Virus record (IMG/VR): IMGVR_UViG_3300004806_000019
Location: 20,224 to 84,223 of that record
DNA: 64,000 bases
Strand: one strand, 5' to 3'
Source: a virus
Below, in pieces: positions 2,190-62,113 of this stretch; position 1 is the stretch's first letter, and the number at the start of each line of letters is the position of its first letter. The notes under the pieces are model-generated. The model had not been told where the DNA came from. It saw nothing but the letters and a program-made list of their open reading frames with translations, and searched no databases. The position numbers were made by a program, and so were the translations under genes.

Positions 2190-2247
2190 TTCCAACAATA
2201 AAGAGTTTGAGGTAAAAGTATAAATTCTCTTGCGAAGGACACCCGTC

Positions 2248-4830
2248 TTGGCTGATGACAAGAACCCCATTCCACCTGATCGCCGCGCTCCTACCGGAAG
2301 TCCAGATGACCCCGTCTACCAAAAGACAGGAATGGATTCCGGCGTAGATGTCGGAGAGTATATGTCCGTCGATACAAGCGAAGACGGGCCGGAAATCATC
2401 GATAGCCCTGACGGGGGCGCCTTCGTCGTAATCGGAGAGGCAAAGGAATCAAACCCACCAGACCTGGAGTTCTACGCAAACCTCGCGGAAACACTCCCTG
2501 AAGACATCATGTCTAAACTCGCTTCCGACCTCCTGAAGAAGATTGAGAATGACAAAGAGTCCAGAAAGAAACGCGACGAACTCTATGAAGAGGGACTGCG
2601 GAGAACAGGTCTAGGAAAAGACGCCCCCGGAGGCGCCGAGTTCGACGGAGCCTCTAAAGTCGTCCACCCAATGATGACTGAAGCCTGCATAGACTATTGC
2701 GCCCGTATTATGAAGGAAATCTACCCCGTCGCAGGGCCTGTAAGAGAACGCCTCATTGGCGCCCCTACACAGGAAAAAGCCGATAGAGCCAAGCGCAAAG
2801 TCGAGCATATGAACTATCAGTTCACAACACAGATCAAAGAAGCTCGGGGTGTGCTGGAACAAACCTTTACTCAAACCCCGCTCTCAGGATCCGAATATAT
2901 CCTCCTCTATCAGGATCACAGACTGAAACGCCCAAGAATGGAATGTATGCCCTCCGATAAGGTCTACATCCCAATCGCAGCAGCAGACTTCTATTCAGCA
3001 AATAGAAAGACGTGGGAAGAAAACCTGACCGACGTGGACTTCAAACAACGCGTCAACTCAGGTATGTACCGTGATCTGGAGTTGGGGAAATCAGACACAA
3101 CACCAGAACCAAGTAAGGCCGAAGCCGCCAATATGAAAATCGAAGGTATGGAGGATACCGGAGAGAATATCGATGGAGAAAGAACCCTCTATACCTCTAT
3201 GACCTATGTCGATGTCACAGAGGATATGGCTGACGAACTCGACGTGGAAGAAGCAGGGGAACTCTACCCGTACCTGATCACAATTGATAAGACGACAAAG
3301 AAAGTCTTGGCCATCTATCGTGATTGGGAGAAAAACGATGAGGCAAGAGAACCAATCGAACACCTATTCGAGTTCGGATTCATCCCATGGAGAGGAGCAT
3401 ACTCAATCGGGTTTGCACAAATTATTGGAGGACTTTCTGCTGCGGCTACTGGTGCTCTTCGTGCTCTACTCGATTCTGCTCATGCTAATAACGCTGTCAC
3501 AGCCTTCGTCCTCAAAGGGTCTGGAATTTCGGGACAGTCTTCTCGTCCTCAAATCGGTGAACTCATCGAGATCGACGCAGGACTAGAAACAGACGATATC
3601 CGTAAACGGGTAATGCCCCCACCATTCAATCAGCCGTCACCCGTTCTGTTCCAGCTTCTAGGACTCCTCGTCTCCGCCGCTCAAGGCGTCGTCCGTACAA
3701 CCATGGACGAAAACGCAACCAATATGAACTCACAGGTTCCCGTTGGAACCCAACTGTCCAGAGTGGAAGAAGGGCTGGTCGTCTTCTCACATATCCACGG
3801 ACGCGCTCATGCCGCCTTCAATAGACTGATAAACGGACTCCATAGACTGAACCGACTCTACCTCCCCGAAACTCTCAGGGTGGACAGAGAAGGAAAGGAA
3901 CTCATGGTCCGTAGATCTGACTATGATGGCCCCATCGACGCACAGCCCGTATCAGACCCGACACTCTATTCCGATCAGCAACGCTTCATGCAGATCACGG
4001 CTATCGAACAAGCCGCCGCTATGTTCCCGCAACTCTATAATATTCGGGAGATACAAAAGCGAAAGCTGAAGCTGTGGAAAGTTCCTGACCCCGATGCTCT
4101 CTTGAAGGATGAGCCTAAAGCAACCGAGATGAATGCCATTGCAGAAAACCTCGCAATGTCACTTGGAAAACCCGTGGTCGCCTTTCCAGAACAGGATCAC
4201 CTCGCTCATCTGAAGTGCATCCTAGACTTCATTCAAAACCCCGTGCTGGGCGCAAACCCACTCATTGCACCCAAATATCTCCCAATGGCATTGCAACATG
4301 CAGTCGAGCATATCGTGTTCTTCTATGTTAAACATGCCGTCGATACCGTGGAAAGCGCAGCAGGGGTTAAATCAATAACCGAACTGATGAGCAATGATAC
4401 CGGAGTAAAAGCGGAGTTCGATAAACTCCTGGCTAACGCCTCAACTGATGTCATGGGCGATATCACGCAAATCCTCCAACAGTACATGCCCGTCCTGCAA
4501 CAGGCGCAGCAGATGATGCAGTCCTTTATGCCCAAACCCCCCATGGATCCGGCAGAGGCTGCACTCCAGGCACAACAGATGGAGACACAAAGACGTTCCG
4601 CCGCCGATCAGGCAGAGAACCAGATCGAACAACAACGCGTGGCTATCGAACAGCAAAACGCGCAAATCAATGCTCTCAAAGTGCAAAATGCAGAAAAATC
4701 AGCTACAATTACCGCTTTGACAAAGCTAAAAACTACGCAGATGGATAACGCTACCGCCAGACAATCTATTGTAGATAAAGCGATGGCAGGACAACAAAAC
4801 CATATGGTCAATGGTGAAGGCTTGAAATAG
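2248..4830 (+). CDS. Portal protein, large podovirus type
   Basis: 860 residues; forms the dodecameric vertex through which DNA enters and leaves the head. Identification rests on position after the terminase and on portal-like features: an acidic N-terminus, a helical crown/stem region and a long Gln/Ala-rich helical C-terminus (about residues 740-855) likely to form a barrel or coiled coil. The length is well above lambda or T7 portals and resembles the large portals of SU10-like podoviruses; I could not confirm that by search. I chose TTG 2248 because GAAGGA lies eight bases upstream; the TTG at 2230 lacks such a site. Codon choice is A/C-rich, unlike the adjacent terminase. The next gene follows within ten bases. 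Confidence 0.85.
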   Translation: MADDKNPIPPDRRAPTGSPDDPVYQKTGMDSGVDVGEYMSVDTSEDGPEIIDSPDGGAFVVIGEAKESNPPDLEFYANLAETLPEDIMSKLASDLLKKIENDKESRKKRDELYEEGLRRTGLGKDAPGGAEFDGASKVVHPMMTEACIDYCARIMKEIYPVAGPVRERLIGAPTQEKADRAKRKVEHMNYQFTTQIKEARGVLEQTFTQTPLSGSEYILLYQDHRLKRPRMECMPSDKVYIPIAAADFYSANRKTWEENLTDVDFKQRVNSGMYRDLELGKSDTTPEPSKAEAANMKIEGMEDTGENIDGERTLYTSMTYVDVTEDMADELDVEEAGELYPYLITIDKTTKKVLAIYRDWEKNDEAREPIEHLFEFGFIPWRGAYSIGFAQIIGGLSAAATGALRALLDSAHANNAVTAFVLKGSGISGQSSRPQIGELIEIDAGLETDDIRKRVMPPPFNQPSPVLFQLLGLLVSAAQGVVRTTMDENATNMNSQVPVGTQLSRVEEGLVVFSHIHGRAHAAFNRLINGLHRLNRLYLPETLRVDREGKELMVRRSDYDGPIDAQPVSDPTLYSDQQRFMQITAIEQAAAMFPQLYNIREIQKRKLKLWKVPDPDALLKDEPKATEMNAIAENLAMSLGKPVVAFPEQDHLAHLKCILDFIQNPVLGANPLIAPKYLPMALQHAVEHIVFFYVKHAVDTVESAAGVKSITELMSNDTGVKAEFDKLLANASTDVMGDITQILQQYMPVLQQAQQMMQSFMPKPPMDPAEAALQAQQMETQRRSAADQAENQIEQQRVAIEQQNAQINALKVQNAEKSATITALTKLKTTQMDNATARQSIVDKAMAGQQNHMVNGEGLK

Positions 4831-5061: not shown

Positions 5062-5239
5062 AACTTCTGGTGGCTGTCGCACTTTCAGTTTCTGGAACAG
5101 CCCACCAGAACGAAGCCGGGGATGTCACTCAACCTTAACCACCGTCTTTAGTCATTTGTGGTTGAAGTGATCAAGTGTCGCGGCAGCAGGGGTTTGGTCA
5201 TTGGCCCCCTGGATTTGGACATCAATCCCCGGAACGGGC
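5062..5239. terminator. Convergent intergenic region with three hairpins
   Basis: This is the only gap between the plus-strand head genes and the converging minus-strand operon. Three inverted repeats are visible. TTCTGGTGGCTGT (5065-5077) pairs with ACAGCCCACCAGAA (5097-5110) with one bulge. CTTAACCAC (5134-5142) pairs with GTGGTTGAAG (5158-5167) with one bulge. CAGGGG (5187-5192) pairs with CCCCTG (5206-5211). None has a clear U-tract on either strand, so intrinsic termination is not assured. The placement between converging genes makes a bidirectional terminator the simplest reading. Confidence 0.4.
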
Positions 5240-6481
5240 TTATCCTTTACGGATTGAGTCAACCCATAGATATGCCTTAGCGATACAATCACCCCATTCG
5301 TAAAGCCTCTCCTGACGAATAATCTTCATACGAGGATACCAAGGTGACTTATCGCCAGTAGTAACAAGCCAACGCCAATCAGGAACGGCAGGAATAAGAA
5401 GGCAAACTGGAATATCCAATGCACCGGCAAGATGAGCAACTCCCGTATCACAAGTGACAAGAGCATCCATGGATTTTAAAAATGTCGCAGCAGCACTCCA
5501 CTTGGCTTCAATCAACCCAGATAAATCTGTCACCAAAGCTTGCGCTCCAGCATTCGCTATAGCAGCGGAATGCTTGCCAACCTGAAAGCTGAACAAATCC
5601 CAATCAGGGGAATTAGCTAAAGGAAGAAACTCCTCAAAGAGGATGGACCTCCAGCTATCACGCAAATGACCCGTGCTTCCCGCCCAACAGATTCCAACAT
5701 TGAACCCTGTGCGACTCTGAGGCTTGTCCATTTCAGCATAGGTAAGAAGACCAGGATCCGAAGGAAGCGTATCCGGCATAATGTCAAAAAGCTTCGGAAC
5801 ACTATGAAGAAGGATCTCTTCATCAACTCCATCAACCGCATATCCCTTTAAGGAAATGTCTCCATATTCTTTATATCCCTGGAATAAGGAGTACATCGAA
5901 GCTGGGACGGAAAATGTAACCTTGCTTGCATGTTCAGCAATCAAAGGAACAAACCGGGCAAACTGAATAGCGTCACCCGCACCCTGTTCACTGGAAATAA
6001 GAATATGCTTTCCCTTCAGATCGTCCGGATATCCGCCAAAAGGTTGAGCAACAAACCTATGATCAATTATATTGATCCTATGTTCGTACTCATTCCACCC
6101 CTCATCCCACTCCCCTAGAAGCATCAGAGAGGCCGAATAATCAATATGAAAGGCCGTATTCTCAGGATTATATAAAACAGAGGTTGCAAAAGAATCCCTC
6201 GATTCCTCAAACAACCCGATTGCACTCTGCGCTAAACCAAGGATGCTCCAAGCACCCCCAATATTCTGGTTCTTATCGAGAACCTCAGAAACCATAGAAA
6301 TGGATTCTTCTGGCTTTCCAACGCGCAAAAGAGTGCTGGCCAAATTTAATTGATAGCTAATCTGACTAGGGTCAATCGATACAGCACGACGCAGACAAGC
6401 CTCTGCCGCATGATGATTGCCTGCATTAATCCGGATAATACCTAGGCTTGCAAGCTCACGGGCATAAATCAAAGGGTCCAT
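5240..6481 (-). CDS. TPR protein with GT9-like glycosyltransferase C-terminal domain
   Basis: 413 residues. Residues about 1-140 are tetratricopeptide repeats (for example the AEACLRRAVSIDPS helix pair). From about 155 on, the protein resembles the ADP-heptose/GT9-like domain often fused to TPRs in Proteobacteria: an SSEQGAGDAIQFARF segment, GICWAGS, then CDTGVAHLAGALDIPV and PDWRW with SPWYP near the end. It probably transfers a sugar to a protein or surface glycan; donor and acceptor are unknown. The start lies one base after the stop of the GT41 gene (TAACATG), so it is the last gene of the minus-strand operon. The C-terminal domain recurs in the sulfotransferase fusion at 34414-36189. Confidence 0.85.
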   Translation of the reverse strand: MDPLIYARELASLGIIRINAGNHHAAEACLRRAVSIDPSQISYQLNLASTLLRVGKPEESISMVSEVLDKNQNIGGAWSILGLAQSAIGLFEESRDSFATSVLYNPENTAFHIDYSASLMLLGEWDEGWNEYEHRINIIDHRFVAQPFGGYPDDLKGKHILISSEQGAGDAIQFARFVPLIAEHASKVTFSVPASMYSLFQGYKEYGDISLKGYAVDGVDEEILLHSVPKLFDIMPDTLPSDPGLLTYAEMDKPQSRTGFNVGICWAGSTGHLRDSWRSILFEEFLPLANSPDWDLFSFQVGKHSAAIANAGAQALVTDLSGLIEAKWSAAATFLKSMDALVTCDTGVAHLAGALDIPVCLLIPAVPDWRWLVTTGDKSPWYPRMKIIRQERLYEWGDCIAKAYLWVDSIRKG

Positions 6482-6482
6482 G

Positions 6483-8246
6483 TTATTCCTTCACAGTAAA
6501 AGAGATGGGAGATTTCCCACTGATGTAGGAGAACCATGCAGAGGAAAAAACATTCTCCATGAGTTCTCCAAACTTTTTGATGTTGCAAAGCGGTGAGCTA
6601 AGAAGACGATCTCTCATTCCAAACCTTATCGCTCGTAAATAATTTGGATTCTCCGCAAGGGATATAGCCTTTTTGCGATATTCAGCAGGAGAGGAAGCAA
6701 TGAACTCATCAAGCCATATAGACTTTAAATAGGCTGATGAATGGCGGGAGGGGTAAGTGAACTTAGGAAGAGTGATAACCGGCAACCCCATCCATAAGCA
6801 TTCAGTCGTTGTAACCCCTCCTGCATAGGGAAAGCTATCAAGCGCAATGTCAACCTGACCCATTGCCTCTTGATGCTCCTCTGAAGAGGAATAGCCAAGA
6901 AAGGAAATCCTCTCAGGATTAATCCCCCGATCACTGAACATCTGGCGATAACGAGATACAGTGTCAGGACAGTCCAAAGCAGGAGACTTCATTAGAAGCT
7001 TAGACTTCGGAACAGAGGAAAGAATGTCAGACCACAACGTTATGACGTTAGAGCCAATCTTTTTCAGAACATTGAAGGATCCAAAGGTGATGTACCCATT
7101 CCTGTCAAAGGGTAAGGAAGGAAGAGGATCATAATAAGAAGGCTCAAAACATACCGTTGTATGAGGAAGCTTGATCAGCTTCTCAGTAAAATACTCGTCC
7201 AGGCCATCAAGCTCAGTCTTACTGGCAATCAGGTAATCCATTTGAGGGGAACCCGTAGTGCCAGGATACCCAAACCAAGTCATTTGAATCGGGGCAGGCT
7301 TTCTTGCAAAGACCTCGAGTCTATTCCCAGCCGTATACCCGGCGAGATCAACCAGAATATCAATTTCATCCAACATGATACGTTTGTGAAGCTCATCGTC
7401 ATCTAATCCATAAGCAGGAACAAAGGCCCCAACGTTCCTGAATCTCCTTGAGATATGATCCTCAAGTGGTGTTGTTGAATAGAAAAACAGGCTATAATTC
7501 ATGTCAGAAAGGTACTCAGCAACCGGAGCAACCGCTAATCCAACAGGGTGCTTTCTAAGGTCGCCAGAGACAAATCCGATTGTTGGTCTTGTATGCTCCC
7601 GTTTCTGATGGAGCGTAATCGGGTAATTCAGATGACGACGGGCGACAAACTCAGACTGAGCAAGGACAAGAACAGGATCATCCTGCCGATAAAGTTCTGA
7701 GAAGGCGATATTGAAAGAAGGGTTCTTAGCCATAGGGTCATGGCGCCCCGCTTCCGTAAAACACTGAATCGCTTCATCAACCCGTCCCTGATCGAGATAA
7801 ATATTGCCAAGATTGTTCCAGGCACTCGTAAAAAATGGGTTGAGTTCAAGTGCCTTCTTTAGGGAAACTTCCGCATCTCCAAGCTTGCGAAGGCTCTGAA
7901 GCGTAAGCCCAAGGTTGCTGTAAGACTCACTGCTGTTGGCATTCAAATGTATAGCCTCTCTGAAATGACGTTCAGCCTCCTCATACCTCATAAGAAGATG
8001 ACAAAGCAGACCGCAATTAATGTTGGAAGGAAGGTTATCTTTGTTGATAAGGATAGAGCGGCGATAGTCCTCAATCGCCTTCTTGATGATACCCGTCTGA
8101 TGCTCAATCATGGCAACATGGGCGTAAAGGTCAGACCGTTCAGGAGAGAGGCAGACGGCAGATCTGAATGTATCTGCCGCTGCTAAATATTCTCTCTTCA
8201 TAAAATGACGGGTTGCCTTGGCGAAAAGAGTTACAGCATTCACCAT
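6483..8246 (-). CDS. TPR-GT41 glycosyltransferase (SPINDLY / O-GlcNAc transferase-like)
   Basis: 587 residues: about six TPRs (residues 1-185) followed by the two-lobed GT41 catalytic region. Visible family marks are GFVSGDLRKHPVG with the conserved His, VDLAGYTAGNR, PIQMTWFGYPGTTG, FGSFNVLKKI, and DSFPYAGGVTTTECLWMGLP followed by PSRHSSAYL. Enzymes of this family move a sugar from a nucleotide donor to Ser/Thr of protein; bacterial examples include TPR-GT41 proteins acting on flagellin. The start ATG overlaps the upstream stop (ATGGTGA), and upstream there is no Shine-Dalgarno, so translation is likely coupled. GT41 is unexpected in a phage head module; with its neighbours it looks like a moron for host surface or flagellin modification (inference). 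Confidence 0.93.
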   Translation of the reverse strand: MVNAVTLFAKATRHFMKREYLAAADTFRSAVCLSPERSDLYAHVAMIEHQTGIIKKAIEDYRRSILINKDNLPSNINCGLLCHLLMRYEEAERHFREAIHLNANSSESYSNLGLTLQSLRKLGDAEVSLKKALELNPFFTSAWNNLGNIYLDQGRVDEAIQCFTEAGRHDPMAKNPSFNIAFSELYRQDDPVLVLAQSEFVARRHLNYPITLHQKREHTRPTIGFVSGDLRKHPVGLAVAPVAEYLSDMNYSLFFYSTTPLEDHISRRFRNVGAFVPAYGLDDDELHKRIMLDEIDILVDLAGYTAGNRLEVFARKPAPIQMTWFGYPGTTGSPQMDYLIASKTELDGLDEYFTEKLIKLPHTTVCFEPSYYDPLPSLPFDRNGYITFGSFNVLKKIGSNVITLWSDILSSVPKSKLLMKSPALDCPDTVSRYRQMFSDRGINPERISFLGYSSSEEHQEAMGQVDIALDSFPYAGGVTTTECLWMGLPVITLPKFTYPSRHSSAYLKSIWLDEFIASSPAEYRKKAISLAENPNYLRAIRFGMRDRLLSSPLCNIKKFGELMENVFSSAWFSYISGKSPISFTVKE

Positions 8247-8860
8247 AGGAGGTACGAGCCTCCGCTAATGAGGAACTGAACTTCGTGATTGCCGTATAAG
8301 AGATCTGTCTCCAGGCTCATCTTCCTTATGCCCGTTGGTGGTCCCATATAAGCAATCACTTCGTCATAAGTCATGCCGTTCCGAAGGTGCTTGAATTTCT
8401 CATCAATCGTTTCAAGCCGCGAGAATGAAGCTTGTTGGACAACTGGCTTCCTGTCCTCCTCTGCCATTTTGTAGATGAGATCCCTGATCTGGCCAGGATC
8501 AAAGGAAACCTGTGCAATGCAGGAAACCCGAAGATGATCCTCCTCCATAGAGGGAACTACAGAAATCGGGGTTATCTTAACCACAGAGCCAACCCACGAC
8601 TTCACTCTCTGAAGAAGCTTCTCATCAACCTTGCCGCTGGATTCATTCGTGGTAATCGTCGTAGAAGCCGTAACGATTGTCCCTGACGCCTCAAGTGCTT
8701 TTCTCGCTGCTTTGGCGAAGCAAGCCGATCTTGCAGCGGAATTGGTGTCAGAATCAGAGGCAATATAGGATGCACTTTGCATGACTGTTGCCGCCTCAAC
8801 TGGGACAAATGAGGCAATAAGAGGGGTAATTATCGTAAGAAGTGGAATTAATTTCCTCAT
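8240..8860 (-). CDS. Exported protein: FlgT-like N-terminal region plus SmpA/BamE-like C-terminal domain
   Basis: 206 residues. A signal peptide runs to about VEA (residue 24), so the protein should be periplasmic. Residues 25-125 (SAARSACFAKAARKALE, then a beta-rich stretch) resemble the N-terminal domain of FlgT-type flagellar H-ring proteins. The last 55 residues, with FKHLRNGMTYDEVIAYMGPP, resemble the SmpA/BamE lipoprotein fold. The start is ATG 8860, eight bases after AAGGAG; the GTG at 8869 is too close to that site. The FlgT resemblance is by eye and moderate; the BamE-like part is clearer. It follows a lipoprotein of the LPP20 family, which includes FlgP, in the same operon. Confidence 0.7.
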   Translation of the reverse strand: MRKLIPLLTIITPLIASFVPVEAATVMQSASYIASDSDTNSAARSACFAKAARKALEASGTIVTASTTITTNESSGKVDEKLLQRVKSWVGSVVKITPISVVPSMEEDHLRVSCIAQVSFDPGQIRDLIYKMAEEDRKPVVQQASFSRLETIDEKFKHLRNGMTYDEVIAYMGPPTGIRKMSLETDLLYGNHEVQFLISGGSYLLW

Positions 8861-8865
8861 AATGG

Positions 8866-9447
8866 TCACTCCTTAATGACTTCTGGACGAGGCGCAGAAG
8901 CCGGTTGAGGAGGCTCAGAAGCCTTCTTTATGTCGTTATCAAGCTCCTGATAGGCTTTTGAGGCGCGAAAATCATCCCGTGCAGTGTGATCAGACTGAGC
9001 AATTGCTTGCACCAGAGGGGCATTAAGTAAAACCCAAACCCGATAACCACCATTCTCAATGACGATCTTCTGATCCTTAACGATGTATCCGGAAATCGGC
9101 GCATTGATGGCCGTCTCTTTAACTGTCCTCTCAAAGTGAGAAGCAATGACTCTGGCGTCCTCAAGATGATCGGTTGTTTTTAGAGAGAGCTTTCCGGAAA
9201 TCTTTTCGGCAATCTGTCGTCTGGCCTGAAGGGAAGCCTTATCGATGGCCAACTGAAGATCCGAACTGGTAGCCGTTGCCACACCGATCAGCTTCCCGTC
9301 ATCATCAGGTGGGCTTGTGTACCAGCCAGGACTTTCGTCAGCAACCCGGCTGACTTGTTGCTCTATATAAGCAGGAGTCCCCGGCTTCGGGGATGAACAG
9401 GCCGTTAAAGCTATCGCAGAGACTGCGACATAAAGAACGTGTTTCAT
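8866..9447 (-). CDS. LPP20 / FlgP-like lipoprotein
   Basis: 193 residues. The N-terminus is a lipoprotein signal ending in the lipobox LTAC, so Cys17 should be lipidated and the protein anchored in the outer membrane. The body has SPGWYTSPPDDDGKLIGVA, then a long helix with ASLQARRQIAEKISGK, then GYRVWVLLNAPL: the layout of the LPP20 family, to which the flagellar protein FlgP belongs. The C-terminal tail is Pro- and Ala-rich. The start is ATG 9447 because GGAGGG lies four bases upstream; the ATG at 9462 overlaps the previous stop. A role in the envelope or flagellar basal region is inferred from family and neighbours. Confidence 0.82.
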   Translation of the reverse strand: MKHVLYVAVSAIALTACSSPKPGTPAYIEQQVSRVADESPGWYTSPPDDDGKLIGVATATSSDLQLAIDKASLQARRQIAEKISGKLSLKTTDHLEDARVIASHFERTVKETAINAPISGYIVKDQKIVIENGGYRVWVLLNAPLVQAIAQSDHTARDDFRASKAYQELDNDIKKASEPPQPASAPRPEVIKE

Positions 9448-9458
9448 AAAACCCTCCG

Positions 9459-9743
9459 TCATTTAATCCATTCAGTTTGCTGTCTTGCCCACTCAAGAAG
9501 ATCACTTTTGCGGTAACTCACATAGTTCCATCTGAACCGGATGTAAGGTGGGCCTCCCCCCGCATTGTTATTGATGGCCATGTTTGCCAAACGCTTTGTG
9601 GAAATTGGACACCCAATTGATTTCAGAAAGACGGTTGCCGCTTTCCGATTGAGCCATTCATCCCCATCCTCAAGAAGGAGTTTTGACTTCTTCATGTTCT
9701 CCCTAAACTCTTCCTTGAGCTTATCGGTTAAAACGCCAGCCAT
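9459..9743 (-). CDS. Small helix-turn-helix DNA-binding protein, likely operon regulator
   Basis: 94 residues. From about residue 29 the sequence WLNRKAATVFLKSIGCPI, then a glycine loop AGGGPPYIRF and YRKSDLLEWARQQ, follows the small excisionase/AlpA-type HTH pattern (recognition helix, wing, YxxxDLxxW end). It is the first gene of the minus-strand operon, directly downstream of a promoter overlapped by two CCCATTGGAT repeats, so autoregulation is likely but unproven. Its stop overlaps the following reading frame as ATGA. An excisionase role is possible, but no integrase lies in the window. Confidence 0.75.
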   Translation of the reverse strand: MAGVLTDKLKEEFRENMKKSKLLLEDGDEWLNRKAATVFLKSIGCPISTKRLANMAINNNAGGGPPYIRFRWNYVSYRKSDLLEWARQQTEWIK

Positions 9744-9763
9744 CTTGTAACCTCACTAAGAAA

Positions 9764-9792
9764 CCCATTGGATCAATCTTATCCCATTGGAT
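9764..9792. promoter_or_regulatory. Direct repeat CCCATTGGAT x2, operator candidate
   Basis: Two perfect copies of CCCATTGGAT at 9764-9773 and 9783-9792 have starts 19 bases apart, close to two helical turns. One copy lies in the promoter spacer and the other near the expected transcription start of the minus-strand operon. That geometry suits a repressor or activator binding cooperatively on one face of the DNA. The adjacent HTH protein is the natural candidate. Confidence 0.5.
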
Positions 9793-9804
9793 TTAGATTA
9801 TCAA
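9776..9804 (-). promoter_or_regulatory. Sigma70-like promoter for the minus-strand operon
   Basis: Read on the minus strand, TTGATA (9799-9804) and TAAGAT (9776-9781) are separated by 17 bases, giving a -35 with five of six and a -10 with four of six consensus bases. It lies about 33 bases upstream of the HTH gene and faces it. It is the only obvious promoter for the five tightly packed minus-strand genes. Confidence 0.55.
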
Positions 9805-9847
9805 AAGGTTCTTGAACGTTCCCAACAAATCAAGACAATCTCTCCTA

Positions 9848-10021
9848 ATGACGCACTTTGAAAAACTGATACAGCAGGCACAGGCAGACTGTGTCGCGGC
9901 GATGATGAAGGCGGAATTAGGAAATTCCCACCTTCATGCGTTTCTCAAGGGGCAGCATGGAGGTTTAACCGTCGCCTTGCAGATTTTTAAAAAAGCAATG
10001 CGGCTTGATGCGGAGGAATGA
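9848..10021 (+). CDS. Small helical protein of unknown function
   Basis: 57 residues from ATG 9848, predicted mostly alpha-helical (HFEKLIQQAQADCVAAMMKA), no recognised family. The frame extends upstream to TTG 9812, which has only a weak AAGG nearby, so the start is uncertain. The stop overlaps the start of the GroES-like gene (TGATG), suggesting co-translation. It is the first plus-strand gene after the minus-strand cassette. Confidence 0.55.
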   Translation: MTHFEKLIQQAQADCVAAMMKAELGNSHLHAFLKGQHGGLTVALQIFKKAMRLDAEE

Positions 10022-10479
10022 TGAGCTTACCGAAGAAAGAAGAAACAGTAGAGGATGTCTTTCCAGAGATCCCTTGTGGACATATACCCTTCGGAATGTT
10101 TGTCATTGTCCAGATTAAGTTATCCAAGCGCGTAACGTCTGGGGGCATCATCATCATTGATGATACCAAGCAGACAGAACAGGACAATACGCAGGTTGCC
10201 AAGGTCGTCGCTATCGGGCCAGCAGCATTTAAAGATCGTCGTACCTTTGAGCCATGGCCGGAAGGGGCTTGGTACAAGGTCGGTGATTATGTTCGTTGCC
10301 CGAAATATGGCGGTGATCGCTGGCGGGTAGATTATGAATATCAAGAGGAAGAGCGTAAGGTGGGGAACCTCGTTCTTGCTCCATCAGTTGTGCAGGGGAA
10401 AGTGGAGTTTGCCATGTTCAAGGACATGGACATCCGGTCCTCTGTAGAAGACCCCCTTAAAATCAAGGCGTATATCTAA
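10021..10479 (+). CDS. GroES-like co-chaperonin (Cpn10 fold)
   Basis: 152 residues. The pattern of the GroES barrel is readable: PFGMFVIVQIK, the mobile-loop region SKRVTSGGIIIIDDT, VAKVVAIGPAAF, VGDYVRCPKYGGDRW and a C-terminal strand LVLAPSVV. Phage co-chaperonins such as T4 gp31 replace host GroES so that host GroEL can fold the capsid protein. It is longer than GroES (about 97), the extra length lying in the loop after AIGP and in the C-terminus. GGAGG lies four bases before ATG 10021. It sits directly upstream of the scaffold and capsid genes, which fits capsid folding. No GroEL gene is seen. Confidence 0.85.
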   Translation: MSLPKKEETVEDVFPEIPCGHIPFGMFVIVQIKLSKRVTSGGIIIIDDTKQTEQDNTQVAKVVAIGPAAFKDRRTFEPWPEGAWYKVGDYVRCPKYGGDRWRVDYEYQEEERKVGNLVLAPSVVQGKVEFAMFKDMDIRSSVEDPLKIKAYI

Positions 10480-31173: not shown

Positions 31174-34100
31174 ATGTCAGGGGTAACTTCCGCATTACTC
31201 TGGGGCGGCAAAGCACCGGCAGCAGTGGGTCTGTTGGCGTGGGGGAATAATTCTTATGGTCAGCTAGGTCTTGGGAATACGACTTATTATTCAAGTCCTA
31301 AACAAGTTGGAGCGTTAACAAACTGGTCTAGCATTGTTGGTGGCGCCTATCATGGTGTTTCTATAAAGTCTGATGGCACTCTATGGGCGTGGGGATTAAA
31401 TCAATATGGTCAATTAGGTTTAGGAAATAGAACTTATTATTCCTCTCCAAAGCAAATCGGCGCTTTAACGAATTGGTCAAAAGTTGCTTGTGGCGGAAGG
31501 TTTACGACGGCCATTAAAACTGACGGAACCCTATGGACTTGGGGGTTTAATAATAATGGTCAACTTGGTTTAGGAAATAGAACTTATTATTCTTCTCCAA
31601 AGCAAATCGGAGCTTTAACTAATTGGTTAAAAGTCGCTTGTGGGTACTATCACACAATAGCGATAAAAACAGACGGAACACTATGGACTTGGGGACTAAA
31701 TCAATATGGTCAGTTAGGTTTAGGAAATATCACGAATTATTCTTCTCCGAAACAAGTTGGATTATTAACAAACTGGTCCAGTTGCGCTGGAGGGCAATCT
31801 CATACAATTGCCATTAAAACAGATGGGACTCTATGGACTTGGGGGTGGAACATTTTTGGTCAATTAGGGCTTGGAAACATTACGAATTATTCTTCTCCGA
31901 AACAAGTCGGCTTATTAACAAACTGGTCCAGTTGCGCTGGAGGGCATTATCATATAGTGGCAATTAAAACAGACGGCACCTTGTGGTCCTGGGGAAGAAA
32001 CAATTTTGGTCAATTAGGGCTTGGAAACATTACGAATTATTCTTCTCCGAAACAAGTCGGCTTATTAACAAACTGGTCTAGTTGCTCTGGAGGGCAATAT
32101 CATACAGTTGCCATTAAAACAGATGGGACTCTATGGACTTGGGGGTGGAACATTTTTGGTCAGCTTGGTTTAGGAAATATAACTTATTATTCCTCTCCAA
32201 AACAAGTTGGATCTCTTACTTCATGGGTAAAAGTCGCTTGTGGTTTTAACCAAACCCTCGCCATAGGCCGCCCCGTCCCCGTTGGCCTGATGTCGTGGGG
32301 GTATAATGGTTCTGGGCAGTTAGGTTTAGGAAATACGACTTATTATTCCAGTCCTAAAGCTGTGGGACAGTTGACGAACTGGTCAAAAATAGCAACAGGT
32401 AATACTTTTGTAGCTATAAAAACTGATGGGACACTTTGGGTTGGGGGATGGAATAATAATGGTCAATTAGGGCTTGGAAACATCACTTATTATTCTTCGC
32501 CTAAACAGGTTGGGGCATTGACTAACTGGTCTAGTGTGGCTTGCGGTCAATCCTCTACGGCAGCAATTAAAACTGACGGCACCTTGTGGTCCTGGGGAGG
32601 GAATCAATACGGTCAACTTGGTCTTGGAAATACCACAAGCTATTCAAGCCCCAAACAGGTAGGTGGTCTAACTAACTGGTTGGCTCTCGCTTGTGGTGAA
32701 TACTTTGCTATTGCCACCAAGACTGATGGCACATTATGGGCGTGGGGGCAGAATAATAGCGGTCAGTTAGGTCTTGGGAACAGAACCCATTATTCTTCTC
32801 CTAAACAAATAGGCGCTTTAACAAATTGGTTAAGTGTTGCCTGTGGGAACTATTACGTTTTATCAATTAAGACTGATGGATCTCTATGGGCTTGGGGTCA
32901 AAATAACTATGGTCAATTAGGGCTTGGAAATCAGACTTATTATTCTAGTCCCAAGCAAGTCGGTGGCCTGACGAATTGGTTAAAAGCTGTCCCTGGTGGT
33001 GGATACTTTGCTATTGCCACCAAGACTGATGGAACTTTATGGGCTTGGGGAAACAACCGATACGGCTCGTTAGGTCTTGGGAACATTACGAATTATTCTT
33101 CTCCAAAGCAAATCGGAGCTTTAACTAATTGGTTAAAAGTCGCTTGTGGGAGCTATCACGTTTTATCAATTAAGACTGATGGATCTCTATGGGCTTGGGG
33201 ATTAAATAATTATGGTCAATTAGGGCTTGGAAACATTACGAATTACTCCTCCCCCAAGCAAGTCGGCTCCCTCACCACATGGCAGAACGTCGCCTGCGGG
33301 CATTTTTCTGTCCTCGCCACGATAGTCCCCGTATCGCCGGGGCTGGCGGCTTGGGGGCAGAATAATTATGGTCAGCTAGGTCTTGGGAATCGGACTTATT
33401 ACTCTTCGCCTAAACAGGTTGGAGCGTTAACTAACTGGTCTAGCATTGCTGGCGGCATCTCTCATGTTGTTTCTATAAAGTCTGATGGAACCTTGTGGGC
33501 GTGGGGGGCTAATAACAATGGTCAGCTAGGTCTTGGGAATCGGACTTATTATTCAAGTCCTAAACAAGTTGGCGTTTTAACGAATTGGTCAAAAGTCGCT
33601 TGTGGGTACCTTAGCACAATGGCGATAAAAACTGACGGAACCTTGTGGGCATGGGGTCAAAATGCCCTTGGACAATTAGGGCTTGGGACCATTACGAATT
33701 ATTCTTCTCCAAAGCAAATCGGAGCTTTAACTAATTGGTTAAAAGTCGCTTGTGGGTACTATCACACAATAGCGATAAAAACAGACGGCACTTTATGGAC
33801 TTGGGGGTATAACTACTATGGTCAGTTAGGTTTAGGAAATATAACTTATTATTCCTCTCCGAAACAAGTCGGCTTATTAACAAACTGGTCCAGTTGCGCT
33901 GGATGGCAGTATTTTACAGTTGCCACCAAAACAGATGGCACTTTATGGACTTGGGGTCAAAATGCCTATGGTCAATTAGGGCTCGGAAACATTACGAATT
34001 ATTCTTCTCCAAAGCAGGTTGGAGCGTTAACTAACTGGTCTAGCATTGCTGGCGGCATCTCTCATGTTGTTTCTATAAAGTCTGATGGAACCTTGTGGTC

Positions 34101-34395
34101 CTGGGGGTATAATAACTTAGGTCAGTTAGGTTTAGGGAATCGGACTTATTATTCAAGTCCTAAACAAGTTGGCGTTTTAACGAATTGGTCAAGCGTTGCT
34201 TGTGGCGGAAGGTTTACGACGACCATTAAAACTGACGGAACCTTGTGGGCATGGGGTCAAAATGCCTATGGTCAATTAGGGCTCGGAAACATTACGAATT
34301 ATTCTTCTCCAAAGCAAATCGGAGCTTTAACTAATTGGTTAAAAGTCGCTTGTGGTGGATATACTACCATCGCCACCTTTGGGGTAATGACGTAA
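31174..34395 (+). CDS. RCC1-repeat protein: three tandem seven-bladed propellers
   Basis: 1,073 residues made of 21 repeats of about 50 residues, each with GQLGLGN, YYSSPKQVG and IKTDGTLWxWG. Breaks with different sequence (GRPVPVGLMSWG near residue 364; VPVSPGLAAWGQNN near 716) divide them into three groups of exactly seven, the blade number of the RCC1 beta-propeller. RCC1 folds bind proteins, DNA or sugars; here a receptor-binding or tail surface role is likely from its place in the tail module. Repeats are 150 bp long and nearly identical at DNA level. The start has no strong Shine-Dalgarno. No signal peptide. Confidence 0.88.
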   Translation: MSGVTSALLWGGKAPAAVGLLAWGNNSYGQLGLGNTTYYSSPKQVGALTNWSSIVGGAYHGVSIKSDGTLWAWGLNQYGQLGLGNRTYYSSPKQIGALTNWSKVACGGRFTTAIKTDGTLWTWGFNNNGQLGLGNRTYYSSPKQIGALTNWLKVACGYYHTIAIKTDGTLWTWGLNQYGQLGLGNITNYSSPKQVGLLTNWSSCAGGQSHTIAIKTDGTLWTWGWNIFGQLGLGNITNYSSPKQVGLLTNWSSCAGGHYHIVAIKTDGTLWSWGRNNFGQLGLGNITNYSSPKQVGLLTNWSSCSGGQYHTVAIKTDGTLWTWGWNIFGQLGLGNITYYSSPKQVGSLTSWVKVACGFNQTLAIGRPVPVGLMSWGYNGSGQLGLGNTTYYSSPKAVGQLTNWSKIATGNTFVAIKTDGTLWVGGWNNNGQLGLGNITYYSSPKQVGALTNWSSVACGQSSTAAIKTDGTLWSWGGNQYGQLGLGNTTSYSSPKQVGGLTNWLALACGEYFAIATKTDGTLWAWGQNNSGQLGLGNRTHYSSPKQIGALTNWLSVACGNYYVLSIKTDGSLWAWGQNNYGQLGLGNQTYYSSPKQVGGLTNWLKAVPGGGYFAIATKTDGTLWAWGNNRYGSLGLGNITNYSSPKQIGALTNWLKVACGSYHVLSIKTDGSLWAWGLNNYGQLGLGNITNYSSPKQVGSLTTWQNVACGHFSVLATIVPVSPGLAAWGQNNYGQLGLGNRTYYSSPKQVGALTNWSSIAGGISHVVSIKSDGTLWAWGANNNGQLGLGNRTYYSSPKQVGVLTNWSKVACGYLSTMAIKTDGTLWAWGQNALGQLGLGTITNYSSPKQIGALTNWLKVACGYYHTIAIKTDGTLWTWGYNYYGQLGLGNITYYSSPKQVGLLTNWSSCAGWQYFTVATKTDGTLWTWGQNAYGQLGLGNITNYSSPKQVGALTNWSSIAGGISHVVSIKSDGTLWSWGYNNLGQLGLGNRTYYSSPKQVGVLTNWSSVACGGRFTTTIKTDGTLWAWGQNAYGQLGLGNITNYSSPKQIGALTNWLKVACGGYTTIATFGVMT
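31216..34380 (+). repeat. Tandem 150 bp repeats in three blocks of seven
   Basis: DNA repeats coding the RCC1 blades; successive GGTCAR(T/C)TAGG blocks begin 150 bases apart (for example 31258, 31408, 31558). Blocks are 31216-32262, 32281-33321 and 33340-34392 approximately. Identity between distant units can be perfect: 33415-33498 equals 34015-34098, exactly four units apart. Linkers between blocks are G/C-rich in third positions, unlike the AT-leaning repeats. The pattern points to ongoing gene conversion or unequal exchange. Confidence 0.85.
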
Positions 34396-34413
34396 TTCAA
34401 CGAAGGAGTTTTT

Positions 34414-36189
34414 ATGAACAAGACACTGCATTTCCTTAGTGGTATCCCCAGAAGTGGGAGCACTGTGTTAGCCGCCATTCTTAATCAAAACCCGCTAACC
34501 CATGTCTCTACCACCTCTGGCCTAGTACACGCCTTGGATGGGCTTGCGAATACGTGGCACTCAGGTCCACTTCTTGTAGACAAAGACCCGGATCATAAGC
34601 AGCTTTGCGCGGCTATGCGGGGCGTGATTGACAATTTCTACACCGATACCGACAAGCCCGTCATTATCGACAAGTCAAGAGGGTGGCCGATACCGATTAT
34701 TATGGGGGCGATGACGCAAGTGCTTGGGAGAAAGCCTCGTATCATTGCAACGGTCAGGTCGATCCCAGATTGCGCGGCGTCTTTCATTCGGGTTGCTAAA
34801 CCCCAAGATCTGGACAAGTTCATCGCTGACGGTCAGTTGATGGAGCATCTGAAGGCGGCTTACATCTCTCTGCAAGAGGGCTGGCAGGCTGCACCAGAGA
34901 ACTTCCTGATTGTTGAATATGAAGACCTGTTGGCTGATCCGAAAGAGGTCTTGAACAGGGTCCATGCTTTCCTTGGGCTTCCTGACTTCACCTATGACTT
35001 TGAGAATATCGACGGGGAGCCTGTTAAGGAAGACGACGAGAACCTTCACGGCTATGCTGGGATGCACGACATTAAGCCGAAGCTGGAACACCAGCATAAG
35101 CAGCATCCGAGAGATGTCCTGAAGGAGCATTATGGGAGCTTCTGCCAGCCTGAGTTCTGGTTGGATAAGCCCAGGACGATCCCTGACATCTCTGATCTTG
35201 ACCTCCAGCTTGTGGCGTCACGGACAGGGGACTTTGAAGAGGGTTGGCGTCTGGCGCAGAAGATGGAACGGGAGATCCCGAATAACCATCGTGCGGCTTT
35301 CAACCGTGGCTGGTATGCGCTTCGACAGGGCAAGATCCAAGAGGGCTATAAGCTGATGGAGCGCGGCAGATATGTACAAGTCTTTGGAGATCCGCCACCG
35401 GATGCGCCAACGAAGCCTTGGGACGGTCTGGCGAAGGGCATTGTGCTATTGAACCTTGAGCATGGGCTAGGTGATCAGATCCACCAGATCCGCTTTGCCA
35501 AGCATATTGCCAAACGGGCTGGTCGGTGCGTTGTGTCTTGCGCGGGTCAATTGGCGTCCTTGTTTGTGGATGTTGAGGGGGTTTCTGCTGTCGTCCAGAA
35601 AGAGGCCAACTTCGGTATCTACCATGACTTCTACGTCCAGGGGATGAGTGCAATCCTGCCGCTTGGGTTTGAACTGCCTGACATTACGGGTGAGGCTTAT
35701 ATCAGGAAGCCGAATGTCATTCGTGGCAAGAAGTTCCGCATTGGCCTGCGCTGGCTTGGTTCCACTCGCTTTGAGCCGGATCATGTGAAGAGGTTCCCCC
35801 ATGAACTGCTGTTCAATGCGGTCAAGGACATTCCTGACGTTGAGTTCGTAAGCCTCCAGAGGGATGAGGGTGCCGAGCATCGCCCCTATTGGTGCCGTGA
35901 GGTTCCGCTTCAGTCTTGGGAGGATACGCGCAATGCTGTCGCCTCCTGTGACTTGGTGATTTCGTCCTGCACCTCTATCTCTCACTTGTCAGCAGCGATG
36001 GGCGTTGAGACTTGGGTTATCACGCCAATCATGCCATACCACTTATATGCGCTTGATGGCGAGAAGACTCCTTACTATGACCATATGCGCCTGTTCAGGC
36101 AGGAAGTGTTTGGGGAGTGGGAGCATCCCTTCATCAACATAAACAAACGACTGATGGAACGGTTCAGTTCCAAGATGGCAGCGGAATAG
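34414..36189 (+). CDS. Sulfotransferase-TPR-GT9-like fusion protein
   Basis: 591 residues. N-terminal sulfotransferase: P-loop-like 5'-phosphosulfate motif SGIPRSGSTVLAAIL (residues 9-23) and the 3'-phosphate motif TVRSIPDCAASFIR (about 112-125), then FLIVEYEDLLADP. Residues about 265-310 are TPR-like (AAFNRGWYALRQGKIQEGY). The last 240 resemble the GT9-like domain of the 413-residue protein in the minus-strand operon: LEHGLGDQIHQIRFAKHI, GLRWLGSTRF, SCDLVISSCTSISHLSAAMG. It could sulfate, and perhaps glycosylate, a virion protein or host surface glycan. A strong AAGGAG precedes the ATG. Placed between the RCC1 and fibre genes. Confidence 0.85.
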   Translation: MNKTLHFLSGIPRSGSTVLAAILNQNPLTHVSTTSGLVHALDGLANTWHSGPLLVDKDPDHKQLCAAMRGVIDNFYTDTDKPVIIDKSRGWPIPIIMGAMTQVLGRKPRIIATVRSIPDCAASFIRVAKPQDLDKFIADGQLMEHLKAAYISLQEGWQAAPENFLIVEYEDLLADPKEVLNRVHAFLGLPDFTYDFENIDGEPVKEDDENLHGYAGMHDIKPKLEHQHKQHPRDVLKEHYGSFCQPEFWLDKPRTIPDISDLDLQLVASRTGDFEEGWRLAQKMEREIPNNHRAAFNRGWYALRQGKIQEGYKLMERGRYVQVFGDPPPDAPTKPWDGLAKGIVLLNLEHGLGDQIHQIRFAKHIAKRAGRCVVSCAGQLASLFVDVEGVSAVVQKEANFGIYHDFYVQGMSAILPLGFELPDITGEAYIRKPNVIRGKKFRIGLRWLGSTRFEPDHVKRFPHELLFNAVKDIPDVEFVSLQRDEGAEHRPYWCREVPLQSWEDTRNAVASCDLVISSCTSISHLSAAMGVETWVITPIMPYHLYALDGEKTPYYDHMRLFRQEVFGEWEHPFININKRLMERFSSKMAAE

Positions 36190-46970: not shown

Positions 46971-48098
46971 ATGGTTGGGATGTTAAACGCAATTGCTGGC
47001 AGATATCATTATGATGAAGGCGGCTCTACTGGAGATGACGACCAGCAGAGAGGTCCACTCTCCACTTATGACCCGTCTGTTCTTGGCAATATGCAGAATG
47101 CAGTCCTAGGGGGAACACCTGAATCTGCCTTGCAGAAATATAAGGATGCCCAATCAGCACAGGAAGCAGCGGCCCAAGCAAAGAAGGATCGTATCCAACA
47201 GGCAATGGATACACTGAGTGCAAATCGCTCCAATCTCCCGATGATGGCTTTTGGCGCAGGGATGATGAAGCCAACCCACACTGGCACGTTTGGCGAAACA
47301 CTTAGTAATGCAATGAGCGATACAATCCCCGCCATTGATAAGCAGCGTCAATATGAGGCGCAGCTTCAGCAGATGGGGGTTTCAGCGGCTGACGTTGATC
47401 TGGCCCAGAAGACTAAAGCGGCCCAAGATTGGACAGACCGGATGAAGCTTGGGTTGACTACGGCAGAAACAAACCAGAGATTGCAGCAAAGTGATCAGCA
47501 ACATCAGGATTCGCTTAATCTTCAGAGGCAGCAGCTTCAAGGACAAAAAGGATATTATGATTATTTGAAGCAAGAAGACCCTGACGAAGTTTCCTCATGG
47601 GTGCCATTGTATGAAAAACCGGGCGTTCAAAAGATGGACCCTGTAAGTGGCTTGCCGTTATATCAAGGCATGAGCAAAACAGAGAAGCCCGTCGGTCAGC
47701 CTCGGATTGTTAGAAGTGATGATTTGGATAGCAGCAATACAAGTTCCCGTGCAGATCCGATTATTTCGCAGTATAATTCGGCTCAGAAGGCGCTTGATGC
47801 TGCTATTAGCAAAAGGTACGTTATATTAGGATCAAATCCTAAAGCCGATACGAAAATGTTAGATGAGCAAATCGCTCGTCAAAGAGAGCTTGTTGAACAA
47901 TTGAGAGTTGCGGCTACGACAAGGTTGGGAGGCTCAACCACAACGCAGCCTGTATCGCCGGATCCCTTAGCGGCAGGATTAGGGGGAAACGGAAGTGTTC
48001 CTTCTAAGAAGCCAAACATTGATCCTGGCATATATTCTCCTTCTCAAGAAGCAGCTAGGTCTGGAGCATTTCCCGCCCCACAGCCAGGAATTGATTGA
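46971..48098 (+). CDS. Helical internal virion-type protein
   Basis: 375 residues from ATG 46971, six bases after GAGGGA; the longer frame from 46914 overlaps the previous gene. It contains YHYDEGGSTGDDDQ near the start, a segment GAGMMKPTHTGTFGETLSNA typical of phage internal proteins, and a long Gln-rich coiled coil (about 140-200). The end is Pro/Gly-rich. It stops on the start codon of the giant protein (TGATG), so the two are made together. Confidence 0.65.
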   Translation: MVGMLNAIAGRYHYDEGGSTGDDDQQRGPLSTYDPSVLGNMQNAVLGGTPESALQKYKDAQSAQEAAAQAKKDRIQQAMDTLSANRSNLPMMAFGAGMMKPTHTGTFGETLSNAMSDTIPAIDKQRQYEAQLQQMGVSAADVDLAQKTKAAQDWTDRMKLGLTTAETNQRLQQSDQQHQDSLNLQRQQLQGQKGYYDYLKQEDPDEVSSWVPLYEKPGVQKMDPVSGLPLYQGMSKTEKPVGQPRIVRSDDLDSSNTSSRADPIISQYNSAQKALDAAISKRYVILGSNPKADTKMLDEQIARQRELVEQLRVAATTRLGGSTTTQPVSPDPLAAGLGGNGSVPSKKPNIDPGIYSPSQEAARSGAFPAPQPGID

Positions 48099-60901: not shown

Positions 60902-60921
60902 CCCCGCCCTAAAGGACGGGG
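60902..60921 (-). ncRNA. Right-end hairpin and presumed 3' part of the TnpB guide RNA
   Basis: CCCCGCCC (60902-60909), loop TAAA, GGACGGGG (60914-60921) form a stem with one mismatch; the tnpB stop codon lies inside it. In TnpB systems the right end and adjacent coding sequence give a guide (omega or re-) RNA whose 3' spacer is flanking DNA. Here the spacer would be the minus strand from base 60886 downwards, AAGATTCCTTATGGAGTAGG. The RNA boundaries are not determined. Confidence 0.5.
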
Positions 60922-61988
60922 ATTTCCGCAACCGGAGGCGCATGCTCGCGCCCGAGAATATTACAAGCAGCATTAACGTCACGGTCATGGATGGTTCCGC
61001 AATGCTCACAAGTCCATTCTCTTACTCCAAGGTCTGCGATACCTCTCGGCCTCCCATTGGGCAACGCGCCACAACAGGAGCAGACTTGGGAACTGTATGC
61101 TTCGTTGACAATGCTGAACTTCCGGCCAAGCGCAATCGCTTTATAAGCAAGCTGGTTTCTAAACATCGTCCATCCGGCATCGCTGACGGATTTCGCCATT
61201 TTGGTTTTCATCAATCGGGATGGGCTGACGTTACCAACCACGATATGTCCGTATTGACGGACAATTCTTGTGCTTTCGACATGCAGGAAATGCCTGCGCT
61301 GTCTGGCAATCTTGGCCTGAATATCTCTGGCGCGACGTTTTTGTTTGCGCCGTTGATACAGAGCCAACTTTTCCTGAGAGGATCGGAAAAACTTTGGAGA
61401 CTCGATCTTGGTTCCGTCGCTCATAGTGGCGAAAGTTTTCAAGCCAAGATCAATCCCAACGGCGAGGCCATCCTGTTTTTCCCCATCTGGCAACTCGATC
61501 TGGATGTTGACAAACCAATGTCCTTGGCTATCGCAGGACAAGTTCCACGATTTAGGATTTCCGTTCTCTGGAATGGGGCGAGACAACCAAAGCCGGTAGT
61601 CACGACCAAGAAAACGCAGAGTATCCCCGTCCAATTTAGCAGGACGTTTGAAATTGCTGAATGGAATCCAGTCGAGGTTGCGCTTGGCCGACCGGAAGCG
61701 CGGCGTCTTTGGAAAACATGCGCTCCGAGAATCGGCAAACTTGGCACAAACCGCATCAACCGTGTCGGAGTGAATACCAAGTTCTTTGGTCACACCTCGG
61801 CACAAATTGGCAAGATCGAACGCAGAAGGACGCTTGATAGTCATCCCGGCGCGGTATCTGGATGCGGCAACGCGGTCAGTTTCGCAACAATAATTCCAGA
61901 CGAAATTAACCGCTCTAGCCTGCGTCCTAAGCGCACGACGAACGGCTTTATTTCCATCCTTGATTCGGTATTGGTGCGTCAATATCAT
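60909..61988 (-). CDS. tnpB: TnpB RNA-guided nuclease (IS605 OrfB family)
   Basis: 359 residues if started at ATG 61988 (MILTHQYRIKDGN, the usual N-terminus); the frame continues to TTG 62048. RuvC-I is AVGIDLGLKTFAT with the catalytic Asp. A four-cysteine zinc finger is CSCCG and CEHCG. RuvC-III is DRDVNAACNIL with Asp. In RuvC-II the usual Glu is replaced (HIVVGNVSPSRL), and a Glu stands instead in VNEAYSSQ, as in a part of the family with a shifted acidic residue. These proteins cut DNA guided by RNA from the element's right end and keep the element in place. Activity of this copy is plausible; the reading frame is intact. Confidence 0.88.
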   Translation of the reverse strand: MILTHQYRIKDGNKAVRRALRTQARAVNFVWNYCCETDRVAASRYRAGMTIKRPSAFDLANLCRGVTKELGIHSDTVDAVCAKFADSRSACFPKTPRFRSAKRNLDWIPFSNFKRPAKLDGDTLRFLGRDYRLWLSRPIPENGNPKSWNLSCDSQGHWFVNIQIELPDGEKQDGLAVGIDLGLKTFATMSDGTKIESPKFFRSSQEKLALYQRRKQKRRARDIQAKIARQRRHFLHVESTRIVRQYGHIVVGNVSPSRLMKTKMAKSVSDAGWTMFRNQLAYKAIALGRKFSIVNEAYSSQVCSCCGALPNGRPRGIADLGVREWTCEHCGTIHDRDVNAACNILGREHAPPVAEIPVL

Positions 61989-62113
61989 CGAAAAGGGCGT
62001 CTTTCTGGTAATGACAGAAGCTCGTCTAGGGACTGTGCGACGTTGCAAGCGTCCACAGTCCCGATCAATTTACCCCACTTTTGTCTCAACATCAACAAGG
62101 GAGCGGCTTTCCT

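What the first reader, a model, noticed from the sequence alone, without database searches (positions are those of the whole stretch)
5240..9743. Minus-strand operon pairing FlgP/FlgT-like envelope proteins with TPR-GT41 and TPR-GT9-like glycosyltransferases inside a phage head module
Five tightly packed genes run against the structural genes, with their own promoter and regulator: HTH, LPP20 (FlgP family) lipoprotein, exported FlgT/BamE-like protein, GT41 enzyme, GT9-like enzyme. Known bacterial TPR-GT41 proteins include flagellin glycosyltransferases, and FlgP and FlgT are flagellar outer-ring components. The set suggests a phage system that modifies the host flagellum or surface, for instance to block competing phages. 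The sequence shows the domains; the flagellar role is inference.
Basis: partly seen in the sequence, partly recalled or inferred. Interest (0 to 1): 0.86.

Follow-up and report, generated by a model that had tools for sequence, protein, structure and literature searches.

The report
Phage cassette: sugar-transfer enzymes plus lipoprotein
A phage that probably infects an alphaproteobacterium carries, inserted backwards between two of its capsid genes, a five-gene cassette of two protein-sugar-attaching enzymes and two envelope proteins; it most likely alters the infected cell's surface, but a link to the flagellum is only partly supported and the true target is unknown.

Summary
In detail: five tightly packed minus-strand genes (HTH_17-like protein, LPP20 lipoprotein, exported protein with a BamE-like tail, TPR-GT41, TPR-GT9-like) interrupt a phage head module. 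They are an insertion: in 63 of 64 related phages the portal-to-GroES-like gap is 332-939 nt (5,188 here). The HTH gene belongs to the site, not the cargo: the three closest relatives have it at the same place and orientation with other cargo (a cold-shock protein, short ORFs) or none.

The flagellar reading is only partly supported. For: in bacteria, TPR-GT9 lies in the same cluster as TPR-GT41 in 4 sampled loci, 3 of them among flagellar genes. Against: 48 of 62 sampled bacterial GT41 loci show no flagellar gene nearby and the label is scattered on the GT41 tree; none of 35 other viral GT41 loci has one; several phage GT41/GT9 genes sit beside capsid or tail genes. The LPP20 protein has the Lpp20 fold, but its closest relatives (six bacterial loci; phages of Pelagibacter and OM43) sit in non-flagellar settings, several beside an exported SHS2/DUF4384-type partner. 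The exported window protein is not FlgT by architecture.

Best reading: a moron-type surface-remodelling module, target undetermined. The combination was found nowhere else.

The parts
9459..9743 (-). HTH protein (94 aa), HTH_17/AlpA-like by homology to its relatives; resident of the insertion site
   Evidence: homologues at the same place and strand in L055, L067, L056; HTH_17 E 1.8e-4 and 1.3e-3 (both below cut-off) in L056 and L067
8866..9462 (-). LPP20-family lipoprotein (198 aa; likely start 9447; lipobox ...AIALTAC)
   Evidence: Pfam LPP20 1.1e-6; AlphaFold model pLDDT 68; Foldseek top hit H. pylori Lpp20 5ok8, E 5e-4; relatives
8240..8869 (-). exported protein (209 aa; likely start 8860): SHS2/FlgT_N-like N-domain (inferred) plus BamE/SmpA-like C-terminal motif GMTYDEV..G.P
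   Evidence: BamE 0.11; bacterial homologue L039 of the same layout, E 3e-4; single-sequence model pLDDT 38, not usable
6483..8246 (-). TPR-GT41 protein glycosyltransferase (587 aa); conserved GT41 positions incl. HPVG (233-236), K396 and the FPY.GG..T stretch kept
   Evidence: Pfam GT41 3e-53; best PDB match SPINDLY 1e-95, TPR/OGT-like 5djs 4e-63; alignment with bacterial homologues
5240..6481 (-). TPR plus GT9-like glycosyltransferase (413 aa)
   Evidence: bacterial TPR-GT9 homologue in L180, E 1e-44
9744..9825 (-). divergent gap with two promoter-like sites (9825-9797, 9804-9776); not above chance
5065..5110 (.). 9-nt perfect inverted repeat downstream of the cassette, between convergent genes; terminator-like but weak
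   Evidence: (z -1.78)
2230..4830 (+). portal, left flank of the insertion site
10018..10479 (+). GroES-like gene, right flank of the insertion site
   Evidence: Pfam Cpn10 1.6e-6; synteny
34414..36189 (+). second TPR-GT9-type enzyme of the same phage, fused to a sulfotransferase, directly after an RCC1-repeat protein (31174-34395)

Best explanation
The cassette is a moron-like insertion at a variable cargo site in the head module of a tailed phage that probably infects an alphaproteobacterium. During infection the lipoprotein and the exported SHS2/BamE-like protein go to the periplasm and outer membrane as a two-protein unit, while the two TPR glycosyltransferases attach sugars in the cytoplasm to a protein that they recognise through their TPRs. 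Together they remodel the surface of the infected cell, most likely masking or changing a phage receptor (superinfection exclusion). The target is not identified; flagellin is one candidate. Shown: gene content, insertion, variable cargo, enzyme families with conserved GT41 positions intact, and that such lipoprotein/exported-protein pairs exist elsewhere in phages and bacteria. Inferred: timing, joint action, target and benefit.
For: Insertion: 63 of 64 related phages lack it at the syntenic site, including Caulobacter phage RW and ctpbd312. Variable cargo led by the same HTH gene in the three closest relatives. Opposite strand to the late genes and lower GC (44-48% against 49-54%; GC3 0.40-0.45 in the GT genes). 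Four-base overlaps suggest joint translation. LPP20 with an exported partner is a recurring pair: bacterial loci, viral contigs L006 and L007 (DUF4384-type partner, 35% identity to the bacterial one, E 6e-56 for L006) and Melnitz (partner E 1e-9). Conserved GT41 positions kept.
Against: No transcription data, no host, no acceptor. Phage GT41/GT9 genes elsewhere often sit beside virion genes, which favours virion glycosylation. Homology of the exported protein to the DUF4384-type partners is weak (hhalign E 0.011, probability 4%). GTs and lipoprotein pair were never found together elsewhere, so they may not act in one process.
Confidence: 0.42

Rival explanations
1. Virion glycosylation: GT41 and GT9 glycosylate the phage's own capsid or tail proteins; the lipoprotein pair is an unrelated passenger.
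For: TPR-GT41 genes lie beside major-head-protein genes in L216, L221 and L242. TPR-GT9-type genes lie directly after RCC1-repeat proteins next to tail-fibre genes in S-SRM01 and BUCT-ZZ01, and the window phage has the same RCC1 then sulfotransferase-TPR-GT9 order at 31174-36189. ctDrO704 has a TPR-GT9 downstream of its capsid gene.
Against: The cassette runs against the structural genes, sits at a site whose other cargo is not structural (CspA in L056), and carries two envelope proteins.
Confidence: 0.28
2. Flagellin or flagellum modification: the GT pair glycosylates host flagellin, changing motility or flagellotropic phage adsorption.
For: TPR-GT9 with TPR-GT41 in flagellar clusters L147 (three flagellins, FlbT, FlgL/K/J/I), L180 (FlgE/K/L) and L197 (FlbT). 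By path length the nearest row to the phage GT41 on the tree is L147_7966, in a flagellar cluster. Caulobacter FlmG, a TPR plus GT-B enzyme, glycosylates flagellins (PMC7591256).
Against: 48 of 62 sampled bacterial GT41 loci show no flagellar gene nearby, and the label is scattered on the tree (19 changes, shuffled 19.9; the phage branch is very long). No flagellar gene near 35 other viral GT41s. The lipoprotein and exported protein have non-flagellar relatives.
Confidence: 0.17
3. Counter-defence or envelope-stress decoy: the LPP20 and exported proteins mimic partners of a bacterial caspase/trypsin/DUF4384/LPP20 locus and disable it.
For: Six bacterial LPP20 loci carry a DUF4384 protein and most a TPR-trypsin gene, one also a caspase-like gene. 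The bacterial homologue of the exported protein lies near Sel1 and MORN-repeat genes. Trypsin and caspase domains match PADLOC models weakly.
Against: No evidence that those loci are defensive; domain-level PADLOC matches only; the GTs are unexplained.
Confidence: 0.06

Closest known systems
LPP20 lipoprotein family (PF02169; H. pylori Lpp20 HP1456; FlgP as a flagellar member)
   Same: Pfam match above cut-off, lipobox, SHS2-like core, top structural hit 5ok8
   Different: distinct subfamily with the motif SPDLQLAIDKA (SSDLQLAIDKA in the window) shared with phages and some Rhodospirillales; no FlgP beta-hairpin insert in the model; relatives in non-flagellar loci
Phage lipoproteins of Pelagibacter phages HTVC008M and Mosig and OM43 phage Melnitz (annotated hypothetical)
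   Same: homologous (26-28% identity); Melnitz also has an exported partner with the DUF4384-type N-domain upstream
   Different: no glycosyltransferases in the cassette; single lipoprotein next to glutaredoxin, thioredoxin or cell-wall hydrolase genes; marine myophages
Bacterial TPR-trypsin / DUF4384 / LPP20 locus (Terasakiella and relatives)
   Same: LPP20 lipoprotein next to an exported SHS2-type protein
   Different: the phage has no protease gene; its exported protein ends in a BamE-like motif instead of DUF4384
Alphaproteobacterial TPR-GT41 / TPR-GT9 clusters, including flagellar ones; FlmG of Caulobacter
   Same: same two enzyme architectures in one cluster
   Different: 30-38% identity, long phage branch; no flagellin or flagellar gene in the phage; whether FlmG is GT41 or GT9-like was not tested
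SPINDLY / OGT (GT41)
   Same: full-length match, conserved catalytic-domain positions kept
   Different: donor sugar and acceptor unknown

Membership tests
LPP20 family | Pfam PF02169 above the curated cut-off | tested here: met
   29.5 bits against cut-off 25.9
LPP20 family | Lpp20/SHS2-like fold | tested here: met
   model core confident; Foldseek top hit 5ok8, E 5e-4, prob 1.00
[quoted passage not shown]
   modelled as helix 103-120, but pLDDT there is about 50
FlgP | genomic link to flagellar genes | tested here: not met
   no flagellar gene read in the bacterial LPP20 loci or in the phage loci examined
FlgT | three-domain architecture FlgT_N, FlgT_M, FlgT_C | tested here: not met
   209 aa, no FlgT domain in Pfam even at E 1
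FlgT | FlgT_N/SHS2-like fold of the exported protein | tested here: inconclusive
   single-sequence model pLDDT 38
BamE | BamE domain above cut-off | tested here: not met
   12.7 bits against 23.2; only the GMT.DEV..G.P motif, shared with L039
GT41 | GT41 catalytic domain with conserved positions | tested here: met
   181 bits; invariant columns kept
GT41 | transfers a sugar to protein | not testable with these tools
   needs enzyme assay
GT9 | Glyco_transf_9 above cut-off | tested here: inconclusive
   21.7 bits against 22, 32 residues aligned; full-length relatives are TPR-GT9 proteins
flagellin glycosylation system | next to flagellin or flagellar genes, or flagellin as acceptor | tested here: not met
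   no flagellar gene recognised among the phage genes read; acceptor not testable
phage moron | inserted between conserved phage genes, absent from relatives, different composition | tested here: met
phage moron | own promoter and terminator | tested here: inconclusive
   promoter-like sites at chance level; weak hairpin

The most novel reading that the evidence does not exclude
A phage-borne flagellum or surface glycosylation island: the first phage cassette in which a protein-O-glycosylating TPR-GT41/TPR-GT9 pair taken from a bacterial flagellar cluster is joined to an outer-membrane SHS2 protein pair, used to recode the infected cell's flagellin or surface proteins against competing phages.
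Probability: 0.13. Interest if true: 0.8.

Novelty: new variant of a known kind. Interest (0 to 1): 0.48.

Why it matters
Phage-encoded protein glycosylation is poorly understood, and GT41 enzymes in phages have, to my knowledge, no assigned acceptor. This locus gives a bounded cassette at a defined insertion site with a clear empty allele in relatives, so target and benefit can be tested. It also ties an unannotated phage lipoprotein family, present in abundant SAR11 and OM43 phages, to a bacterial envelope locus and to an exported partner, which makes its role in infection testable.

Tried and rejected
Exported protein: no relatives in the phage, viral or genome collections by pattern scan; one bacterial homologue in 385 genomes, and that homologue found no further one; its model was unusable; profile comparison with the DUF4384-type proteins only E 0.011. 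LPP20 against DUF4384 and against the exported protein: no profile match. A GT41 tree to decide flagellar or not: label not clustered. TPR-GT9 relatives by pattern scan in viral contigs: none beyond the sister contig. Rfam and tRNA: nothing in the window. First idea that the flagellar link was empty: dropped after finding the GT9/GT41 pair in flagellar clusters. Idea that the HTH protein is the cassette's own regulator: rejected, because it is present without this cargo in relatives.

Full report
OBSERVATION. The five minus-strand ORFs at 5240-9743 exist as described. They are overlapped by 4, 4 and 7 nt, with 1 nt between the last two. Pfam gives GT41 (3e-53) with TPRs, TPRs with a borderline GT9 match, LPP20 (1.1e-6), and only a sub-threshold BamE match for the exported protein. 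The window is part of an 84,223-nt virus record. A second contig carries the same region at 100% identity.

THE PHAGE AND THE SITE. TerL, portal, GroES-like protein and capsid resemble those of Caulobacter phages (RW, KcrB, GB2A) and a spring-water phage; the major capsid protein is 77% identical. I searched for relatives by capsid and measured the portal-to-GroES-like gap in 64 of them. It is 332-939 nt in 63; only L056 is larger (3.6 kb); the window has 5,188 nt. So the cassette is an insertion. The three closest relatives carry a homologous HTH gene on the same strand at the same place: L067 without obvious cargo, L056 followed by a cold-shock protein, L055 followed by short ORFs. The HTH gene therefore belongs to the site and the cargo varies. 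GC is 44-48% in the cassette against 49-54% around it. Promoter-like sites are at chance level, and the downstream hairpin is weak.

THE LIPOPROTEIN. A 13-sequence model has a confident core, and its best solved match is H. pylori Lpp20. That SHS2-like fold is shared by FlgP and FlgT (PMC12222027), so the fold says 'LPP20 family', not 'FlgP'. FlgP's distinguishing beta-hairpin is modelled as a helix, at low confidence. Sequence relatives are in SAR11 and OM43 phages and marine viral contigs; their hosts are, to my knowledge, non-flagellated. The closest bacterial relatives lie in loci read by ORF and Pfam as TPR-trypsin, DUF4384 protein, often a CsgG-like TPR lipoprotein, LPP20 and a small exported protein, without flagellar genes. 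In L006, L007 and Melnitz a DUF4384-type or related exported protein lies just upstream of the phage LPP20 gene. So a lipoprotein plus an exported partner is a recurring unit, independent of glycosyltransferases.

THE EXPORTED PROTEIN. It has a signal peptide, an N-domain whose weak model pattern looks SHS2-like, and a GMTYDEV..G.P end like BamE/SmpA. One bacterial homologue of the same layout was found. Its link to the DUF4384-type partners is suggestive only. It is not FlgT by architecture.

THE GLYCOSYLTRANSFERASES. GT41 keeps the conserved positions and matches SPINDLY best among solved structures. Of 62 bacterial GT41 loci examined, 14 lie within about 7 kb of flagellar genes. I estimate roughly 1-3% by chance (not measured), so there is a link for the family as a whole. 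On the tree the flagellar label is scattered (19 changes, shuffled 19.9) and the phage branch is long. TPR-GT9 lies in the same cluster as TPR-GT41 in four of the sampled loci; three of these are flagellar clusters: L147, L180, L197. Against it, 35 other viral contigs with TPR-GT41 carry no flagellar gene, LPP20, exported-protein relative or separate GT9 gene within the fetched stretch, and several lie beside capsid genes. TPR-GT9-type genes in two cyanophages follow RCC1-repeat proteins beside tail fibres, and the window phage has that same order at a second place, 31174-36189.

CONCLUSION. A real moron-like cassette at a variable site. The flagellar reading is plausible for the enzyme pair and unlikely for the envelope pair. 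Surface remodelling of the infected cell is my best reading (0.42), virion glycosylation the main rival (0.28), flagellin modification 0.17. The combination of genes was not found elsewhere in the collections searched.

Noticed in passing
31174-36189: RCC1-repeat protein followed by a sulfotransferase-TPR-GT9 fusion; cyanophages S-SRM01 and BUCT-ZZ01 show RCC1 followed by a TPR-GT9-type gene beside tail-fibre genes (S-SRM01 also a sulfotransferase), suggesting modification of tail proteins.
   Followed up: partly
L032, L031, L044, L045, L051, L052: Conserved alphaproteobacterial envelope locus: TPR-trypsin, DUF4384 protein, often a CsgG-like TPR lipoprotein, LPP20, small exported protein, with a caspase-like gene in L032. 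Function apparently unknown.
   Followed up: partly
portal-to-GroES-like gap in L055, L056, L067: Variable cargo site with a resident minus-strand HTH_17-like gene; cold-shock protein as cargo in L056.
   Followed up: partly
60909-62048: TnpB (IS200/IS605 OrfB-like) ORF on the minus strand within the phage, recognised by eye only.
   Followed up: no
48095-59863: Single 3,922-aa ORF with helicase-, methyltransferase- and JAB-like stretches (by eye), probably a polyvalent injected-type phage protein.
   Followed up: no
L028:764-1348 (record position 764-1348): SAM methyltransferase-like protein whose homologue lies next to two TPR-GT41 genes in bacterial locus L047 (28% identity, E 9e-18).
   Followed up: partly
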